Assembly (NCBI GenBank): GCA_024244705.1
Contig: JAAEOK010000036.1
Coordinates: forward strand, 62,001 to 126,000
DNA from: Alphaproteobacteria bacterium
GTDB taxonomy: Bacteria > Pseudomonadota > Alphaproteobacteria > JAAEOK01
Length of the DNA stretch: 64,000 bases
Direction: 5' to 3'
Shown here: piece by piece, positions 10,290 to 64,000 of the stretch
How the letters are laid out: each line of letters starts with the position of its first letter
How positions within the stretch are numbered: the first letter of the stretch is position 1
Notes under the pieces: generated by a model
What the model was told of the DNA's origin: nothing
Database searches by the model: none
Seen by the model: only the letters and a program-made list of their open reading frames with translations
Position numbers and translations under genes: made by a program

Positions 10290-11621
10290 TCACCGCGTGA
10301 CTACCATCACGTCGACACGGTCGGGATCGCCACCTTCGACCTTGTTGCCGAGCGCGCGAACATCCATGCGGGTGCTCCTGACGCCAAGCTTGATCAGGTG
10401 ACCGCGAACGGCGAGCGCCCGAGACAGCGACAACCGCCGGGCTTTGCTGGCTTCCTCGTCGCTGCCATCGGCATAGGCAACGAGCCGTACGCGAAGACTC
10501 TCGTCGTCGCCGAGCTGAGCCGCAACGGCTTCGAGCTCTACGCCGTCGCCGAATTCGGCACTGCCGGGATCGAACCGAACCGACAGTGTGTCACCATCGA
10601 CGGTCTGAGCGGCCGGCGTCCGCGCGGCGACCTGGACCTGCTCCGTCGCCGCCGCTGGTGGTGGCACTTCCACCGCTGCCGGCGCTTGCGCCACCGCAGC
10701 CGGCGCCTGTGCCAGGGCGGGCACAGCGGCGGGTTCGGGCGCCGTCGCCGACGGCGGCGCCTTCGGCTGCGAAGGTTGCACGATGGGGCTCGGCGGAACG
10801 GCGATCGTCGCGGCGCTCGCCGCCGGCATCTCATCGGCCGCCGGTTCGGTGTCCGCCGGATCGGCCGATCCTTCGGCTACCGCCGGGGCCGGCATCGTGG
10901 TTGCGATACTGGTGGCCAGCGCCGGCGGCGCGGCGGGCACCGCTTGTGGTGCCGGTTTGGCCTGAGCCACCGGTGCCGCAGGCGGTTGTGCGACCGCGGG
11001 CGCCACCGCAGCGGTTGCCGTGGGTGTCGCTTGACGAACGGCCGGCACCAAAGGCGTCGGGGAAGTGGTTCTCGGCGCGCTGGCGACCGCCGACGATGGC
11101 GGCCGTATTTGCGGTGCCAACAATGTCGGTTGCGGTGGTCCGAACCCGGAGTTCGGCACCAGCAGATAGCCGCCGTAGGTCGGTCCAGTCTGGGCCACCG
11201 CCGGAGGCGGGGAGTAGGCCGGCACCCGACCATAGGTCGGTGCGGCGCCATAAGGCTGCGGTACGGCACCATACCCCTGCGGTACGGCAACATAGCCCTG
11301 GGGCGCGGCGCCATAACCCTGCGGTGGGGCGCCATAACCCTGTGGCGCGGTGCCATAAGGCTGCGGCGCGGCGCCATAACCCTGCGGTACCGTGCCATAC
11401 GGCTGCGGCGCAGCATAAGCCGGTGCGCCGCCATAGTTCGGTGGCGGATAAGGGGCGTAGCCGCCCTGAACATTCAGGACACTGAGGTCGACGATGACAT
11501 TGGGCGTCGATTGGGCGACCGCGGAATTACCCGCAGCCATCGCCACCAAGACGGTCACAGCGACCGAACCCGCCATTGCCGAAAATTGCCGTGCACGACG
11601 TTCAGATAATTTTCCGGTCAT
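10290..11621 (-). CDS. secreted repeat protein with OmpA-like C-terminal domain
   Basis: A 443-residue exported protein. It has an Arg-rich n-region and a hydrophobic core ending AVA-QS (signal peptide, about 1-37), then a Tyr/Gly/Pro/Gln segment with eight PQGYGAA-type heptads, a roughly 150-residue Ala/Pro linker, and an OmpA-like domain in the last ~100 residues (SVRFDPGSAEF, VAYADG, RALAVRGHL). This suggests a periplasmic or outer-membrane protein touching peptidoglycan. The frame opens earlier at a GTG (11651); I prefer the ATG at 11621 because it gives a clean signal peptide. It heads the unit with the MotA/MotB-like pair. Confidence 0.85.
   Translation of the reverse strand: MTGKLSERRARQFSAMAGSVAVTVLVAMAAGNSAVAQSTPNVIVDLSVLNVQGGYAPYPPPNYGGAPAYAAPQPYGTVPQGYGAAPQPYGTAPQGYGAPPQGYGAAPQGYVAVPQGYGAVPQPYGAAPTYGRVPAYSPPPAVAQTGPTYGGYLLVPNSGFGPPQPTLLAPQIRPPSSAVASAPRTTSPTPLVPAVRQATPTATAAVAPAVAQPPAAPVAQAKPAPQAVPAAPPALATSIATTMPAPAVAEGSADPADTEPAADEMPAASAATIAVPPSPIVQPSQPKAPPSATAPEPAAVPALAQAPAAVAQAPAAVEVPPPAAATEQVQVAARTPAAQTVDGDTLSVRFDPGSAEFGDGVELEAVAAQLGDDESLRVRLVAYADGSDEEASKARRLSLSRALAVRGHLIKLGVRSTRMDVRALGNKVEGGDPDRVDVMVVTR
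11242..11409 (-). repeat. eight 21-bp coding tandem repeats (PQGYGAA heptads)
   Basis: Within the secreted OmpA-like gene, eight consecutive 21-base units encode variants of A-P-Q-G/P-Y-G-A/T. On the plus strand the unit appears as GCGCCATAACCCTGCGG-like blocks. Several copies are nearly identical in DNA, so copy number may vary by slippage between strains. It is coding and has no spacers, so it is not a CRISPR array. Confidence 0.85.
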
Positions 11622-19346: not shown

Positions 19347-19520
19347 CCTTGGGGCGGATGCTGCGCTGCGCGTCAGGCCTCGTGCATCCCTGGGGCCAAC
19401 TCCAATCTCTACAGGGAGCTGTCCCTGCCGGAGCCGTGGCTTCGGTATACGGCGCCCACCTGCACTTTGCAGGCCACAGAGGATCAGGTTGGGCCAACGG
19501 CATGTGCGGCACGCCCCGTT
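19347..19520 (+). ncRNA. ssrS: 6S RNA
   Basis: Located between zapA and the cyclo-ligase gene, the conserved proteobacterial site for 6S RNA. The ends pair in a long stem: GGGGCG (19351-19356) with CGCCCC (19512-19517), and GCTGCGC (19360-19366) with GTGCGGC (19504-19510), separated by small bulges. The middle offers a weakly paired bubble flanked by further helices, as needed to mimic an open promoter. 6S RNA binds sigma-70 RNA polymerase in stationary phase. Exact ends are estimates from the stem. Confidence 0.85.
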
Positions 19521-54862: not shown

Positions 54863-55300
54863 CTGGCCCATGGTGGGAATATTCTGAACTTTATCGGTGA
54901 CGCGGTGCTGGCGATATTCCCAATTCGAAAGCGGCGGACGACAGCGAAACAGGCACGCAAATGCGCTCGCCGCAAGCCGTGACGCGCAACGGCGGCTGGC
55001 CGCCACCAACGCGAATCGGGAAGGGCTCGGTGCCAAGGCGTTGGCATTTGGCTTGGAGCTACATGTGGGCGACGTGCGCTTTGGCAATATCGGGGTACCG
55101 GAGCGCGTTTCATTCTCCGTCATAGGGCCGACGGCAAATGAAGTGGCGCGGCTCGAGGCACTGACGAAGAAGTTGGGCCGCCCGGTACTGGCAACCGAAA
55201 GCTTTGCTCGCAACGTGGCGGCTAAAGGGGTTCGGCTGGGGCTTCACAAACTCCGCGGCGTGGGCGAACCGATCGAGGTTTGTGCGCCAGCGCCGCCCGA
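54863..55300 (+). pseudogene. class III adenylate cyclase remnant, 5'-truncated and frameshifted
   Basis: Begins mid-domain with HGGNILNFIGDAVLAIFP, the second metal-Asp region of class III cyclases. A frame change near 54930 moves into the frame encoding LAFGLELHVGDVRFGNIG, SVIGPTANEVARLE (with the transition-state Asn/Arg) and LHKLRGVGEPIEV, the normal end of such enzymes. The first half of the domain, with the first metal Asp, is absent. The second frame stays open to 55496 without recognisable homology. Confidence 0.75.
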
Positions 55301-55502
55301 CTTCTTCCGGGCTCAAGATTACTGGCAGCTTGCGTGCCTCGTGAGCGGTGGTAATCCCGGCCTGCGCAGCGTCGCGCCCGGGCTCACGCCGAAAAAGAAG
55401 CGCAAGGCCGAGACCGCCGCGTTCATGGTCGTCGCCGAGGCCCCCCGGATCTCATGCCCAGATGAAAGCGCCGCTCGAGCGTCCGCTTCTCGATAGCCAG
55501 GA

Positions 55503-57017
55503 TCATTTGTAACGCTTGATCTCGCCCGACTTTAATCGAGCCTGATAGTCGCTGAGGTCTCTTCTCACCTCTCCCATCATCAAATACAGACCGAGCACAT
55601 TGGCAATGGACATGGCAAAAATGGCCGCATCTGAGAAGTCGATGACCGGACCTAGGCTCATGCTGGCGCCGATGACGACAAACACACAAAAAATGAGCTT
55701 GAAGATCAACTCCGTAACCAGCCCTTCGCCAAACAGATAGGTCCAGCATTTGAGGCCGTAGTAGCACCAGGAGATCATGGTGGAGAAGGCAAACAACAGC
55801 ACGGCTATCGCCAACACGACTCCAAACCAGGGGAAGACTGACTGGAAGGCGGCCGCGGTTAGGTCAACCCCGCCCAACCCTTCGACATTGGCGTAGGTTC
55901 CGGTGATAACGATGACCAGGGCGGTCATAGTACAGATCACCACCGTATCAATGAACGGTTCGAGCAGGGCAACATACCCTTCGGTGAGCGGCTCGCTGGT
56001 ACGTACTGCGGAGTGAGCGATAGCTGCGGAACCGACGCCTGCCTCGTTGGAGAAGGCGGCCCGCTTCAGGCCCTGAATCAGAACGCCTACGATACCTCCA
56101 CCGACGGCCTCGGGTGCGAAGGCGCCTTGAATGACGGCGCCGAGCGCCGTCGGTATCTCACTGAAGTTGGCGAACAGGATGACCAGGGCTGTCCCCACAT
56201 AGATGACGGCCATGAAGGGCACGACCTTCTCGGTCACCTGGGCGATGGATTTGATGCCGCCGATGATAACGGCGCCAACAAGGACGGCCAGGATGACCCC
56301 AAACAGCCAACCGGTCTCGGTAAAGATCCCAAAGGTATTGGAGATCATTTGATGGGCTTGGTTGCCCTGGAACATATTGCCGCCGCCCAGAGAGCCAAAG
56401 ATGCACAAGACGGCGAACAGCACAGCAAGCACCTTGCCGAGCCTTGGCTTGCCTTGGTTTGCCAAACCCTTGCTCAGGTAATACATGGGGCCGCCGGAAA
56501 CACGGCCGTCGGGATATTCGGTACGATATTTGACGCCCAGAGTACATTCGGTGAACTTGGCGACCATGCCGAATAGCCCGGCCACGATCATCCAGAAGGT
56601 GGCGCCAGGCCCTCCCAGGCTGACCGCGACTGCGACACCGGCGATATTGCCCAATCCCACGGTGCCGGACAATGCTGTGGCCAGCGCCTGGAAGTGAGAC
56701 ACTTCACCGGCGTCTCCAGGCTTCGAATAGACCCCGCGAAGCAGATCGATAGAGTGTTTAACCCCCGTGAATTGGATAAAGCCCATTCTCACCGTCAGAA
56801 CAATAGCGCAGATGATCAACCAGCCGACGATCACTGGGAAGCTCACGCCGGCGATGGGCACTGAGTAGAAGATGAAGGACACGAACGGACCGAACACGGT
56901 GCCGAAGGTCTCACTGACTATCTGATCAACACTTCTCCCGGTTTCCTGAGCGAAAGCCGACATCGGCATCAACAGGGCAAACACCAGCCCTAGGGCCGCA
57001 ATAGATTTTGATCTCAT
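55503..57017 (-). CDS. sodium:alanine symporter, AGCS family
   Basis: A 504-residue Na+/amino-acid symporter with about eleven helices. It has the family motif GGPGATFWMIVAGLFGMVAKFTE, the N-terminal GVKHSIDLLRG, ALSGTVGLGNIAGVAVAVS, and AFSNEAGVGSAAIAHSA. The N-terminus looks like a cleavable or re-entrant signal (ending AFAQE). AAGGA precedes the ATG. GC content is lower than in neighbouring core genes, and the protein resembles marine gammaproteobacterial AGCS carriers, suggesting transfer. UspA lies 54 bases upstream on the same strand. Confidence 0.92.
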   Translation of the reverse strand: MRSKSIAALGLVFALLMPMSAFAQETGRSVDQIVSETFGTVFGPFVSFIFYSVPIAGVSFPVIVGWLIICAIVLTVRMGFIQFTGVKHSIDLLRGVYSKPGDAGEVSHFQALATALSGTVGLGNIAGVAVAVSLGGPGATFWMIVAGLFGMVAKFTECTLGVKYRTEYPDGRVSGGPMYYLSKGLANQGKPRLGKVLAVLFAVLCIFGSLGGGNMFQGNQAHQMISNTFGIFTETGWLFGVILAVLVGAVIIGGIKSIAQVTEKVVPFMAVIYVGTALVILFANFSEIPTALGAVIQGAFAPEAVGGGIVGVLIQGLKRAAFSNEAGVGSAAIAHSAVRTSEPLTEGYVALLEPFIDTVVICTMTALVIVITGTYANVEGLGGVDLTAAAFQSVFPWFGVVLAIAVLLFAFSTMISWCYYGLKCWTYLFGEGLVTELIFKLIFCVFVVIGASMSLGPVIDFSDAAIFAMSIANVLGLYLMMGEVRRDLSDYQARLKSGEIKRYK

Positions 57018-57071
57018 TTCCTTGTAGCCCCCTTTGACTATGCGGCGTATTCCTCGGTGTGTTCGGTGTTG

Positions 57072-57506
57072 TTACGGTACTATGGTAACCGGAATTTCGG
57101 CGGCCTGTATCAGCTTCGCGCCCACGCTTCCAAAGAGTAAGGACGAGATAGTCGTATGACCAACCTTGCCCACAACAATCTGGCCGGCACTATGTTCTTT
57201 ACCAATCTGAAGCAGTACGTCTGCCACATGACCATGGCGTACGATCCCGATTGTCTCGATACCTTTGGATTCGAGTGATTCTAACATCGGGTCCAACACC
57301 CGTTCATGTGCGGTCTGGAGTTCCTCCTCCTTACGTTTGTGCCGCTCTTCGTTTTCTTCGGGGGTGTTGAATGTGTAAGGCGACCATTCGATCACAAAAG
57401 CAACGACCAGAGTTGCATTGCTGAACTTGGCTAGGGAGATTGCGAAATCTACGGTTCGACGACTGCTTTCGCTGCCGTCAATACCGACCATTATCGTATC
57501 AACCAT
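57072..57506 (-). CDS. universal stress protein UspA family
   Basis: A 144-residue single Usp domain. The start VDTIMVGIDGSESSRRTVDFAI and the C-terminal ATP-binding loop VVGKVGHTTISSLLFGSVGAKLIQ (G-2x-G-9x-G-S/T type) indicate the nucleotide-binding class. Usp genes beside transporters often modulate them. It stands between the binding protein and the symporter, all minus strand, and has visibly lower GC than the flanks. Confidence 0.88.
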   Translation of the reverse strand: MVDTIMVGIDGSESSRRTVDFAISLAKFSNATLVVAFVIEWSPYTFNTPEENEERHKRKEEELQTAHERVLDPMLESLESKGIETIGIVRHGHVADVLLQIGKEHSAGQIVVGKVGHTTISSLLFGSVGAKLIQAAEIPVTIVP

Positions 57507-57631
57507 TTGTCGTATCAGTCATTGAGTTCCATCCTTGTGGGATGATGTCGGAGAATATCACTCGTCTCGATTCGCCCAAAATAGAAAACCTGGGAAAAGC
57601 CCGGGCCATTTATTTCGAGACATCACTTGAT

Positions 57632-58849
57632 TCACCTTACCTGACCAAATTCCCTGAAAGAGCCTTCTCTTACGTATACGCCCATTTCGACGATCACGCC
57701 GGACACATCGCCAGCCTTGTCAAACTCGTGACTGCCGGTCGCGCCCTCATAGTTGATCTCCTTTCCCGCCTTGAGCAGGGCTTTAGCTTTCTTCCATTCA
57801 CCCGGCAGGATGACCTCACCCGGTGCCGTTGCCACGGCGCGCAAGGCCTCGGCAAGCCTGGCGCGCTCTGCACTGCCGTTCTTCTCGATCGCCAGCGCCA
57901 ACAGGAAAGCGGCGTCATAGGACTGACCAACAAACGGTGCCGTCGGGTTCAGATCGGCACCCCACGCGAGCTCGTTGAATACTCTCGCGCCTGTCGTATC
58001 GGGTTCGCCCGGCTTGGTCGCAATCATGCCTCTCAATTTATCGCTACCGATTGCGTGGATAAGTGTGTTGCTGACCATCCCGTCGCCACCAACAAACCGG
58101 TCAAAATCACCCCTTTCCAGCGCCTGGCGAATAATAGTCTGGCCGGAGCCGTTCGCGTAGGCCAGCACAACCAGCGTATCGGCATCCGAAGCGGCCAGTG
58201 AGCCGATCTCGGCACGGTAGTCCGCCCTGCCCTCCTCGTGTGCCTCGTTCGCCGCCACCTTGCCACCGGCTGCCTTGAAGGCATCGGAAAGCGCATCGGC
58301 AAAGCCCTTACCGTAGTCGTTGTTGACATAGGTGATAGCAATATTATCGATCCCCTTCGACATCAACAGGCGGGCCATGGCGCCGCCCTGATACACATCG
58401 GAAGGCGTGGTGCGGAACACCAGATCGTTGTCATCGAGCGATGTGATTGCTGGAGCTGTTGACGCCGGTGACACCACTGTGACGCCAGCGGGAATCGTAA
58501 CACTATTAGCCATTGCAATCGTCGCGCTCGAACACATTGCTCCGACAACGGCAACGACCTTTTCGGTGTTCACAAGATCGTTGGCGGCGTTTACCGCAGC
58601 GGTGGTATCCGCGCAGGTCGTATCACCGTTGGGCATGGCGATTTCCTGACCATCGAGTACGCCGCCCTGATCATTGACGTGCTTGGCAGCTAGCTTTGCG
58701 CCCTTGTAAATCCCTGGTGTCAGGCTTTGGAGCGGGCCGGTGAACCCGCCAAGAAAACCGACTCTCACATCGGCCGCGGCGGCTCCCGAGCTCATGAGCG
58801 CAGTGGCTACTGCTGCTATTGTCAATGAGCGCTTAAGATTAATTGACAT
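57632..58849 (-). CDS. ABC-type amino-acid-binding protein, LivK/LivJ-like
   Basis: A 405-residue periplasmic protein. The signal peptide (about 1-26, ending AAA-ADV) is followed by the Peripla_BP_6 fold: VGFLGGFTGPLQSL, VVGAMCSSATIA, VSPASTAPAIT, VFRTTPSDVYQG and YVNNDYGKGFADAL. It resembles branched-chain amino-acid or amide receptors. No permease or ATPase gene is next to it, so it either serves a remote ABC system or acts as an orphan receptor for the AGCS/Usp unit. Confidence 0.9.
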   Translation of the reverse strand: MSINLKRSLTIAAVATALMSSGAAAADVRVGFLGGFTGPLQSLTPGIYKGAKLAAKHVNDQGGVLDGQEIAMPNGDTTCADTTAAVNAANDLVNTEKVVAVVGAMCSSATIAMANSVTIPAGVTVVSPASTAPAITSLDDNDLVFRTTPSDVYQGGAMARLLMSKGIDNIAITYVNNDYGKGFADALSDAFKAAGGKVAANEAHEEGRADYRAEIGSLAASDADTLVVLAYANGSGQTIIRQALERGDFDRFVGGDGMVSNTLIHAIGSDKLRGMIATKPGEPDTTGARVFNELAWGADLNPTAPFVGQSYDAAFLLALAIEKNGSAERARLAEALRAVATAPGEVILPGEWKKAKALLKAGKEINYEGATGSHEFDKAGDVSGVIVEMGVYVREGSFREFGQVR

Positions 58850-59133
58850 AAACTAATGGTCCTCAGCCGACATTTTCCATATGGCTCTCGTTCTCACATC
58901 GATCTTGTTCCTTTTTCGGCTGGGAAGCAATAGCCTGAAGCATTTGCCGACAAGGCACGATGTCGGAGAACGTCCCCATTGTGCGCTCGGTGAACCTTTG
59001 ATCTAGCGCAATGTTCGCCATCGATCGTGGCACTATTTCTTTTGGAACAGTGAGAGGTAGCATCCGGTAGATGTCGGACGGCGATCTCGTTTGGGTGAGG
59101 TCAGTTCAATCAAGGGAATGGGAGGGGGACTGA

Positions 59134-60398: not shown

Positions 60399-60652
60399 GA
60401 ACTTTCCCTCCAGCGTTTTGTTCCCTGGCTCTCCGAGCCGTCGGTCGGCACCTGCCTGTCGCCACGGCCGCTGGCCGCCGGCGGTCGCGGATGATAGGGT
60501 GGGCATCGGCACCGGTCCGGGTCTCCGACGACGGTGCCGACGGGGTAATCTGCCGTCGCCCCGTGCCGCATTGGCCGCGGCAGCCGTACTCGGGGTCGCA
60601 TTGACCGTGCCACCGCCGCCGGGGCGAACGGCAAATCATGAGGAGACCGCCC

Positions 60653-61624
60653 ATGGCCCCAAATCCCGACTTCGGCACCGTCGGTGTCAATTTCAGCAAC
60701 AGCTTCCAGTCGACCCCGATCGATCCGGTCAGGGCCGCCAAGCAGATCGCTTCCGTCGGCGTCAAAACCGTGAAGATGTTCAATTATACCCAGACCGAAT
60801 TCCTCGACGCTGCCAGGGCCTCTGGGCTGCGCGTGTTGACCGCGGTCCCAAACGACGGCCTCGCCGCACTGGCCAAAGGCGACACGGCGCCGGTGATCAA
60901 GGCCACACAGCCCTATGCCGACATCGTCGCCGCCATCTGCGTCGGCAACGAGCCGTTGGGGGCGTGGCACAAGGGCAAGTACACGCAGGCCTTGGTTCCC
61001 GCGGTCACCAATCTGGCCAAGGCCCTCGAGGCGGCCCGGCTCGACGTCAAGGTCACCGTGCCCTTCAACTACGCCATCATGGGGCAGTCGTACCCGCCGT
61101 CGCAGGGCGTCCTGAAAGGCGATCTCACCGCCATCATTACACAGGTCTGCACGGTGCTGCGTTCGACCGGCTCCGCGTTCCTGATCAACATCTATCCCTA
61201 CCTCGACTGGCTGAACAACAGGGATCAAATCCCCCTCGATTACTGCCTGTTCACGGCAGGGCCGGACCACTGGGTGCATGACGGCGACCTCGTCTACAAG
61301 AACATCTTCGCCGCGTCCTATGACGCCCTCACCATTGCTTTGGGCCGGATCGGCTTCGACGATCTCGAGGTCGTCGTCGGCGAATGCGGCTGGCCGACTG
61401 CCGGCGACGTCAACGCGACCGCCGCCAACGCCGGGACCTTCAATCAGAACCTGATCAACCACTGCGGGGACCCGCAGCCGACGCCGCGCCACTTCGGACC
61501 CATCTCGTGTTTCGTCTTCGAGATGTACGACGAGGACCGGAAACCGACCGGGCCTGGAGCATTCGAGCATTACTGGGGCGTCTACACCGCAGCCGGCGGA
61601 GCGAAATACCCGATCACGTGGTAG
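60653..61624 (+). CDS. GH17-family beta-1,3-glucanase-like protein, plant-like
   Basis: A 323-residue TIM-barrel hydrolase resembling plant endo-1,3-beta-glucanases: VGVNFS start, VKMFNYT, VGNEPLG with the acid/base Glu100, NIYPYLDW, VVVGECGWPT with the nucleophile Glu244, and the late CFVFEMYDEDRKP and YWGVYTAAGG. Both catalytic residues are kept. No signal peptide is seen with this start; AGGAG is 7 bases upstream of the ATG at 60653. It would act on beta-1,3-glucan such as laminarin or fungal wall. It is monocistronic, convergent with the methyltransferase. Confidence 0.85.
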   Translation: MAPNPDFGTVGVNFSNSFQSTPIDPVRAAKQIASVGVKTVKMFNYTQTEFLDAARASGLRVLTAVPNDGLAALAKGDTAPVIKATQPYADIVAAICVGNEPLGAWHKGKYTQALVPAVTNLAKALEAARLDVKVTVPFNYAIMGQSYPPSQGVLKGDLTAIITQVCTVLRSTGSAFLINIYPYLDWLNNRDQIPLDYCLFTAGPDHWVHDGDLVYKNIFAASYDALTIALGRIGFDDLEVVVGECGWPTAGDVNATAANAGTFNQNLINHCGDPQPTPRHFGPISCFVFEMYDEDRKPTGPGAFEHYWGVYTAAGGAKYPITW

Positions 61625-62739: not shown

Positions 62740-63050
62740 GGGCGCAACCGCGTCGGTTGACGCTGCGGTGTCGCCGTCGTGACGAATTCAACCGCGTTCT
62801 ACACGACGCATGGAAACGAGTATTTGATCGCACCCGACATGCCTTTCGACGACTCGATGGAAGCGTGCGGTGTTGCCGCGCTCGACTTCGACCTCCACCG
62901 TCCGAGGCATTGGGGCAGGTATGAGCATTCATTTTATGTGCCCCATGCCAGGCGTTGCAAATAGTCCGTGCGCGGTCGGTGCCGATCCGACAGCAGATGA
63001 AAATCCAAAATCGGGAATATCCCGATCTACGTCGCCGAAGAGGCGCACGG
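62740..63050. other. divergent intergenic region, no clear gene
   Basis: The shared upstream region of the methyltransferase (minus) and the membrane protein (plus). A 61-codon frame from a GTG at 62779 has no recognisable domain or ribosome-binding site and is left out. An inverted pair, TCGGGAATATCCCGA, lies at about 63011-63025. Confidence 0.6.
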
Positions 63051-64000
63051 ATGAAACGGATATCCGGAACGGCCGGGGGATGGCCGAGACCCGTTTTCCT
63101 GCCGGTTCCGACGCCACTTGGGGCTTGGGTCGCGGGTGCGTTCGATTTATTGTGCGGCGTCGTTGGCTGCCGATTATCGAAGTGTCCCTCCTTGAAAGCT
63201 TCGCCTCTTACGCCTCTCGTGATCCTTGCGGTCTTGTCCCTGCTGCTGGCGGTGGTGGTGACGGAAACGGTGCTCTATTCCCGCGCTACGCCGGCCAATC
63301 ATCCGGAATGGATTTTGTCCAAGCGGTTGGTACCGTCGGGGGTCATGGGCGGCGCGGAGGCGTTCGAGACGCGCAACCTCCTGCGCAACAACCGGCTCAA
63401 TCTGCACGAGTGGCATGGCTACCATGAGGTGCTGCTCGATCGAATCTTCGCATTGGGAGAACTGCGGGCGCGATTCAAACTGGGTCCCGACGGCTATCTG
63501 ATCGCGATCTTCAACAAGAACGCTGCCGGTTATTCGGGCGTTCGAGTGAGCCGCAATCCGCTTTTTCCGAACCTGTTCTTTCGGGCCACGGACACGGGTG
63601 AATTTCTGGTATCCGAGGCACTGGAGGACGTGGCCGTCGATAACGGTTGGCACGAACTGCACCTGCGTTTCGAAGGCGGCATGCTCGAGGTCTCCGTCGA
63701 TGACCTACGTATCGGCCGGATAGAGGAACCGTCCCAGGATGAACAAGTCATCGGATTGCGGTCGGGCCGGCGCAAGGCTGTCATCGACGACATCGAGGTG
63801 GCCGCTGCCGATGGATCGCAAATCATCGCGGACGATTTTCGCAACCGTCGTGGGTTCTGGACGACTCTGGTGTCGCTTTTTGCATTCCTGTTTCTGGTCG
63901 CCGCCGCAATCTACCTTGCGTCCCGTCGGCGGGGCGGCGACGGCAAGCCGGCGCTCTTTTCGTTGATCATGGTCGAGGCGGTCCTGGCAATTTCGTTTCT
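63051..64000 (+). CDS. membrane protein with a jelly-roll-like periplasmic domain (3' cut by window edge)
   Basis: An open frame of 316 codons running off the right edge. ATG at 63051 (MKRISGTAGG) follows AAGAGG. A membrane helix at about 53-73 (PLVILAVLSLLLAVVV) is followed by a roughly 190-residue extracytoplasmic beta-rich domain with a concanavalin/DUF1080-like look (WHELHLRFEGGMLEVSVDDLRIG), then a second helix (270-290) and the start of a third (301 on). The middle could bind glycans. No name can be given; it may belong with the methyltransferase in a surface-polysaccharide locus. Confidence 0.75.
   Translation, partial: MKRISGTAGGWPRPVFLPVPTPLGAWVAGAFDLLCGVVGCRLSKCPSLKASPLTPLVILAVLSLLLAVVVTETVLYSRATPANHPEWILSKRLVPSGVMGGAEAFETRNLLRNNRLNLHEWHGYHEVLLDRIFALGELRARFKLGPDGYLIAIFNKNAAGYSGVRVSRNPLFPNLFFRATDTGEFLVSEALEDVAVDNGWHELHLRFEGGMLEVSVDDLRIGRIEEPSQDEQVIGLRSGRRKAVIDDIEVAAADGSQIIADDFRNRRGFWTTLVSLFAFLFLVAAAIYLASRRRGGDGKPALFSLIMVEAVLAISF

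What the first reader, a model, noticed from the sequence alone, without database searches (positions are those of the whole stretch)
60653..61624. Plant-like GH17 endo-beta-1,3-glucanase in a bacterium
Both catalytic glutamates (E100, E244) and the plant-type end (FEMYDEDRKP followed by YWGVY) are present. GH17 of this shape is mainly known from plants; it sits just outside the tRNA island among other accessory genes. It has no signal peptide from the best start, so either it is exported another way or works inside.
Basis: partly seen in the sequence, partly recalled or inferred. Interest (0 to 1): 0.6.

Follow-up and report, generated by a model that had tools for sequence, protein, structure and literature searches.

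The report
Plant-type glucanase linked to injection machines
This bacterium carries a sugar-cutting enzyme built like those of plants, with no export tag, and most of its few close relatives in marine bacteria sit at the end of gene clusters for phage-tail-like injection particles, which hints at a role in attacking glucan-coated cells.

Summary
In detail: window 60653-61624 (+) encodes a full-length GH17 glycoside hydrolase (E 1.7e-52) with both catalytic glutamates. It is plant-type: its best solved relatives are plant glucanases, the model matches plant chains at Z 33.5-36.5 against 22.5 for the bacterial 6fcg, and it has the ~28-residue stretch that ordinary bacterial GH17 lack. No upstream start can give a signal peptide.

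It is not alone. Relatives at 49-56% identity occur in marine Flavobacteriaceae: a Kordia MAG and eight Tenacibaculum-group genomes. [quoted passage not shown] In a 97-genome genus sample all 7 GH17 carriers are among the 28 genomes with the eCIS cargo domain. The window's genome also encodes an eCIS, but on another contig.

Best reading: a horizontally spread, plant-type endo-beta-1,3-glucanase used together with eCIS particles, released at lysis or loaded, against glucan-coated eukaryotes. Fold and family are firm, activity is probable, the eCIS role is inferred and weaker for this copy. Against loading: it lacks the N-terminal leader of its cargo neighbours. Donor and direction of transfer are unresolved.

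The parts
60653..61624 (+). GH17 plant-type beta-glucanase gene (323 aa, stop included)
   Evidence: PF00332 E 1.7e-52; PDB plant enzymes; model
60641..60645 (+). AGGAG ribosome-binding site for the start at 60653
   Evidence: read from the sequence
60638..60640 (+). alternative ATG, adds 5 residues, no signal peptide
60950..60952 (+). codon of catalytic E100
   Evidence: sequence; invariant column
61382..61384 (+). codon of catalytic E244
   Evidence: sequence; invariant column
61199..61300 (+). approximate plant-type subdomain stretch (about residues 183-216), absent from two ordinary bacterial GH17
   Evidence: 65 residues between N179 and E244 here, 64 in barley, 37 in L037/L038; limits are approximate

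Best explanation
The gene encodes a plant-architecture GH17 endo-beta-1,3-glucanase of a small, horizontally spread bacterial clade. It is a TIM-barrel enzyme with the GH17 pair of glutamates and the plant-type stretch on the aglycone side, so it should cut internal beta-1,3 bonds of laminarin-, callose- or fungal-type glucan. It has no recognisable N-terminal export signal and should gather in the cytosol. In Tenacibaculum, where most known relatives are, the gene mostly sits just after the cargo genes of an eCIS operon. The most likely use there is together with the injection particles: set free with them when producer cells lyse, or carried by them, to open the glucan coat of a eukaryotic target. 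In the window's genome the gene stands alone and the eCIS lies on another contig, so the same use is inferred for it. Shown: family, predicted fold, residues, no signal peptide, the bacterial clade, operon linkage in relatives, an eCIS in this genome. Inferred: hydrolysis, substrate, way out of the cell, target.
For: Family and fold. Plant-type stretch. Clade. Linkage: GH17 follows the cargo genes, same strand, gap 137-716 bp, in 6 of 8 Tenacibaculum-group genomes. eCIS genes confirmed by Pfam in G885; sheath also in G907, G485, G487. All 7 GH17 carriers are among 28 eCIS_core genomes of 97; 9e-5, 3e-4 without the centre genome. A GH64 beta-1,3-glucanase follows GH17 in Hp32 and G885. The window's genome has an eCIS, found in 20 of 385 genomes of its class. 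Papers: eCIS toxins tend to lie at the 3' end and beside DUF4157 genes (PMC8213781, passages).
Against: In the window's genome GH17 (contig C36) is not beside the eCIS (C73). In T. gallaicum and T. discolor the operon is missing at the GH17 site; the Kordia MAG has no eCIS_core match. GH17 has no leader: GRAVY of the first 35 residues -0.17 to 0.16 in nine members against -0.50 to -2.04 in 30 leader-bearing neighbours. The association test ignores shared ancestry. No activity was tested, and the model is weak at 184-191 and 293-309.
Confidence: 0.45

Rival explanations
1. An ordinary nutritional enzyme: a cytosolic or non-classically released glucanase that helps digest laminarin or its oligosaccharides. 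Its place beside eCIS operons in Tenacibaculum would be hitch-hiking at a shared insertion site.
For: No leader of the cargo type. T. gallaicum and T. discolor keep GH17 at the same place without the operon, so an operon inserted beside an older GH17 is possible. In the window the neighbours are not eCIS genes.
Against: GH17 stays at the operon's 3' end although the gene after it differs (S41 peptidase, GH64, hydrolase-like) and the gene before the operon differs (rluA in G885 and T. larymnensis, a TypA-like gene in G907; the last label by eye). The characterised Vibrio GH17 glucanases have signal peptides (PMC9026390, passages).
Confidence: 0.4
2. GH17 is true lumen cargo, loaded into the eCIS tube and injected.
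For: Position next to eCIS_core cargo genes; DUF4157 proteins are lumen cargo in AlgoCIS (PMC8894135, passages).
Against: No leader, no fusion to eCIS_core; truncating the leader abolishes loading in the Photorhabdus system (PMC11495950, abstract).
Confidence: 0.12
3. Contamination or a misbinned plant gene.
For: 127-contig assembly with 4.44% estimated contamination.
Against: It lies on a 219 kb contig between bacterial-type genes, with a ribosome-binding site, window-like GC and bacterial closest kin.
Confidence: 0.02

Closest known systems
Plant GH17 endo-beta-1,3- and 1,3-1,4-glucanases (barley 1aq0/1ghr and 1ghs, banana 2cyg, Hevea 4hpg, potato 3ur7/4gzi, Cryptomeria 6jms)
   Same: Whole-length match, active-site residues, the extra stretch, Z 33.5-36.5
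   Different: About 37-38% identity to three of them; bacterial host; no signal peptide; separate clade
Bacterial laminarinase GH17 of Formosa (6fcg)
   Same: Family, fold (Z 22.5)
   Different: Only a C-terminal sequence match (E 1.3e-5); bacterial GH17 modelled in PMC11005184 lack the plant subdomain (abstract and passages)
Vibrio GH17 glucanases VvGH17 and VbGH17A (PMC9026390, passages)
   Same: GH17 glucanases of bacteria, active on beta-1,3-glucan
   Different: They have signal peptides and extra C-terminal regions; their sequences were not compared here
Plant-derived GH17 of the whitefly Bemisia tabaci (PMC11800479, abstract and passages)
   Same: Plant-type GH17 outside plants; shown there to be an active beta-1,3-glucanase
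   Different: There the donor is a plant; here it is unresolved
eCIS-associated toxins (PMC8213781, PMC11297309, passages)
   Same: 3' end of eCIS operons, beside DUF4157 genes, in the relatives
   Different: No hydrophilic N-terminal leader; in the window's genome not linked to the eCIS

Membership tests
GH17 (PF00332) | Full-length match above the curated cut-off | tested here: met
   179.4 bits against 28.2, positions 18-304/306
GH17 (PF00332) | Two catalytic glutamates | tested here: met
   E100 and E244 invariant
GH17 (PF00332) | Beta-glucan hydrolysis | not testable with these tools
   needs an assay
Plant-type GH17 | Extra subdomain between NIYP and the second glutamate | tested here: met
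   65 residues; barley 64; ordinary bacterial 37 in the two measured; structure of the stretch partly low confidence
Plant-type GH17 | Groups with plant enzymes, apart from other GH17 | tested here: met
   branch 100/98; long-branch warning given there
Plant-type GH17 | Descends from within plant GH17 | tested here: inconclusive
   six plant enzymes form one side (88/84), the bacterial clade another (92/92); other plant subgroups were not available
eCIS-associated cargo | Encoded at the 3' end of an eCIS operon | tested here: not met
   not in the window's genome; yes in 6 of 8 Tenacibaculum-group relatives, one of them (G966) seen only as cargo genes on a short contig
eCIS-associated cargo | Hydrophilic N-terminal leader | tested here: not met
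   GRAVY -0.04 for the window protein
eCIS-associated cargo | Present in purified particles | not testable with these tools
   needs proteomics

The most novel reading that the evidence does not exclude
Plant-type GH17 is a mobile accessory of eCIS warfare: distantly related bacteria share a plant-architecture glucanase and use it, without any secretion signal, together with phage-tail-like injectors to get through beta-1,3-glucan walls or callose of eukaryotic targets.
Probability: 0.33. Interest if true: 0.8.

Novelty: new variant of a known kind. Interest (0 to 1): 0.55.

Why it matters
It is an exception to the published statement that bacterial GH17 enzymes have the shorter active site without the plant subdomain (PMC11005184, abstract and passages). 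It also ties an enzyme that opens glucan coats to eCIS operons. A GH17, and in two operons a GH64 beta-1,3-glucanase beside it, at the cargo end would point to glucan-coated eukaryotes such as algae, fungi or oomycetes as targets, which can be tested directly.

Tried and rejected
Ordinary bacterial GH17: 18 of the 95 other genomes in the class sample have PF00332 matches, all partial (model positions about 218-304) in frames of 343-2023 aa. My spacing pattern found nothing in those partial matches, so the 37-residue figure rests on two sequences, L037 and L038.

Phage, plasmid, virus carriage: no match in plasmids or phages; in viral contigs pattern hits but no relative. Viral structure matches were weak, generic barrels or other glycosidases (best E 3.7e-8, 13% identity).

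Upstream signal peptide: rejected. Odd composition: none.

Prevalence: window protein, 0 of 397 other phylum genomes at E 1e-10; clade profile, 2 of 397 in the Tenacibaculum family, both already known and one the centre, 7 of 97 in the genus draw, 1 of 4 in the Kordia MAG's genus, itself. The genome-contig scan uses two short patterns and is not exhaustive: 8 loci, 6 in the clade.

Prior reports of GH17 with eCIS: none seen in this library. 'contractile injection system'+eCIS+glucanase: 1 paper, the word only in a reference title. eCIS+contractile injection system+cargo+glycoside hydrolase: 1 paper, off topic by title (listing only). GH17+eCIS: 1 paper; its passages show GH171. GH17+Tenacibaculum: 3 papers; in the one read the hit is GH171, the other two were not opened. 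Supplements could not be opened, so toxin tables there were not checked.

Left out of the tree: potato 4gzi (active-site mutant), 6fcg (no full-length alignment printed), the partial class relatives. The tree warns of long branches (fungal 4wtp, Cryptomeria), so rooting is unsure.

GH64: found when the C-terminal 551 residues were scanned, but the scan of the whole Hp32 protein lists only TIG.

That it is not in Bacteroidota is my inference: the family- and genus-level relatives found are Flavobacteriaceae, while its own phylum sample held no relative; no taxonomic marker was searched.

Odds: the novel case went from 0.35 to 0.33 and the best explanation is set at 0.45.

Full report
Observation. 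The frame at 60653-61624 encodes a 323-residue GH17 enzyme. The frame above the start is open for 16 codons, with ATG 60638 as the only other usual start, so an N-terminal signal peptide is not possible. It is the only PF00332 match in its genome, on a contig of 219,440 bases.

Plant type. Against PDB chains the protein finds seven plant sequences (E 1.3e-46 to 4.1e-35) and then the bacterial Formosa laminarinase 6fcg (1.3e-5). A profile of seven clade members gives the same order (E 1.2e-61 to 1.3e-45, then 8.7e-8). The AlphaFold model (pLDDT 79.5, pTM 0.84) matches eight plant entries at Z 33.5-36.5 over 296-307 residues, 6fcg at 22.5, fungal GH17 at 20.7-21.4; unrelated barrels follow at about 18-19. 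Between the NIYP asparagine and the second glutamate there are 65 residues here, 64-72 in the ten clade members, 64 in barley, and 37 in two ordinary bacterial GH17. Plant enzymes carry a subdomain there on the aglycone side; PMC11005184 reports it missing in the bacterial GH17 it modelled and writes of all bacterial GH17 (abstract and passages). The clade is an exception. Residues 184-191 and 293-309 of the model are of low confidence.

A bacterial clade. A pattern scan of the genome collection, with the plant/window alignment as query, gave six relatives at 49-56% identity: Kordia MAG NORP58, Tenacibaculum gallaicum, T. discolor, T. larymnensis, T. agarivorans and Flavobacteriaceae Hp32; two other hits (24-25%) are ordinary GH17. 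A profile search of 97 genomes of the T. gallaicum genus found seven carriers, three of them new (G885, G907, G966). None of the ten proteins has an N-terminal extension. In the tree the window and Kordia proteins pair (93/86), the clade of ten holds (92/92), and with the plants it is separated from the other GH17 by a branch of 100/98. Of 397 other genomes of the window's phylum none has the protein at E 1e-10. Transfer between distant bacteria is the simplest reading. Donor and direction are open, since the only eukaryotic sequences at hand were solved structures.

Injection systems in the relatives. In six of eight Tenacibaculum-group genomes (G485, G486, G487, G885, G907, G966) GH17 comes next after genes with the eCIS_core domain (DUF4157) or with a hydrophilic leader ending in DNR; the gap is 137-716 bp, on the same strand. 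In G885 Pfam confirms the operon: sheath, two gp19 tubes, CIS_tube, baseplate hub, PAAR, gp25, tape measure and AAA. Sheaths are also confirmed in G907, G485 and G487. For Hp32 (G486) only the later part of the operon was fetched, and G966 is an 8.8 kb contig with cargo genes alone. In T. gallaicum and T. discolor the gene stands between a pseudouridine synthase gene (rluA-like) and an S41 peptidase, without the operon; in T. larymnensis the operon lies between the same rluA-like gene and GH17. Loss of the operon is the likelier reading; insertion beside an older GH17 is the alternative. G924, with the same operon lineage (AAA 68% identical) but no GH17, has a GH25 gene near the 3' end. After GH17 come GH64 and LodA in Hp32 and G885, and an Rv2525c-type gene in T. 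agarivorans. GH17 thus looks like one of several exchangeable 3' genes.

Counts. All 7 GH17 carriers of 97 are among the 28 genomes with eCIS_core: 9e-5, or 3e-4 without the centre genome, which was chosen because it has GH17. With the 20 stronger eCIS_core genomes, picked by me, it is 6e-6. Related genomes share history, so the true weight is less. The window's genome has an eCIS on contig C73: sheath (C-terminal model over cut-off, the other below), gp19 tube, CIS_tube, gp25, baseplate J, and three eCIS_core proteins, one with a transglutaminase domain. eCIS_core occurs in 20 of 385 genomes of its class, itself included. The Kordia MAG has no eCIS_core match.

How it works. Shown: family, predicted fold, residues, no leader of either kind, operon linkage in relatives. 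Inferred: endo-hydrolysis of beta-1,3-glucan and use outside the cell. GH17 lacks the leader of 30 neighbouring proteins, and leader truncation abolishes loading in the Photorhabdus system (PMC11495950, abstract). I therefore prefer joint release over loading: eCIS particles are said to leave by cell lysis (PMC8213781, passages), and a cytosolic glucanase would leave at the same moment. In AlgoCIS the DUF4157 proteins are lumen cargo (PMC8894135, passages). For the window's copy the link rests on the habit of the clade and the presence of an eCIS, and is weaker.

Verdict. A real and unusual enzyme type for a bacterium, with a new, testable context. GH17 is known; a plant-type bacterial form in eCIS operons was not found in the searches made.

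Noticed in passing
L066-L071, genes upstream of GH17: 30 proteins in six Tenacibaculum-group operons share a hydrophilic N-terminal leader ending in DNR (GRAVY -0.50 to -2.04), with varied C-termini; a candidate eCIS loading signal.
   Followed up: partly
L045:5983-7905 (+), contig C73 of the window's genome: An eCIS_core protein with a C-terminal microbial transglutaminase match, a likely eCIS cargo.
   Followed up: no
L069, L082, L085: A 348-367 aa protein whose start reads GWIGGFAESNP or GWVGGFAESNP recurs near eCIS 3' ends with or without GH17; the Hp32 copy has no Pfam match.
   Followed up: partly
window 55000-59000: Lower-GC stretch (0.53-0.59 in 1 kb steps against 0.637) just after tRNA-Glu 54584, with a symporter-like, a UspA-like and an ABC-binding-protein-like gene (names by eye); a possible island.
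   Followed up: no
window 62955-64000 and on (L043:1-5751): Three similar membrane proteins in tandem downstream of the window's end; the third matches GDSL lipase models.
   Followed up: partly
window 19355-19516: 6S RNA by Rfam.
   Followed up: no
window 10648-10731: tRNA-Ala called by ARAGORN but not reported by Rfam, probably spurious.
   Followed up: no
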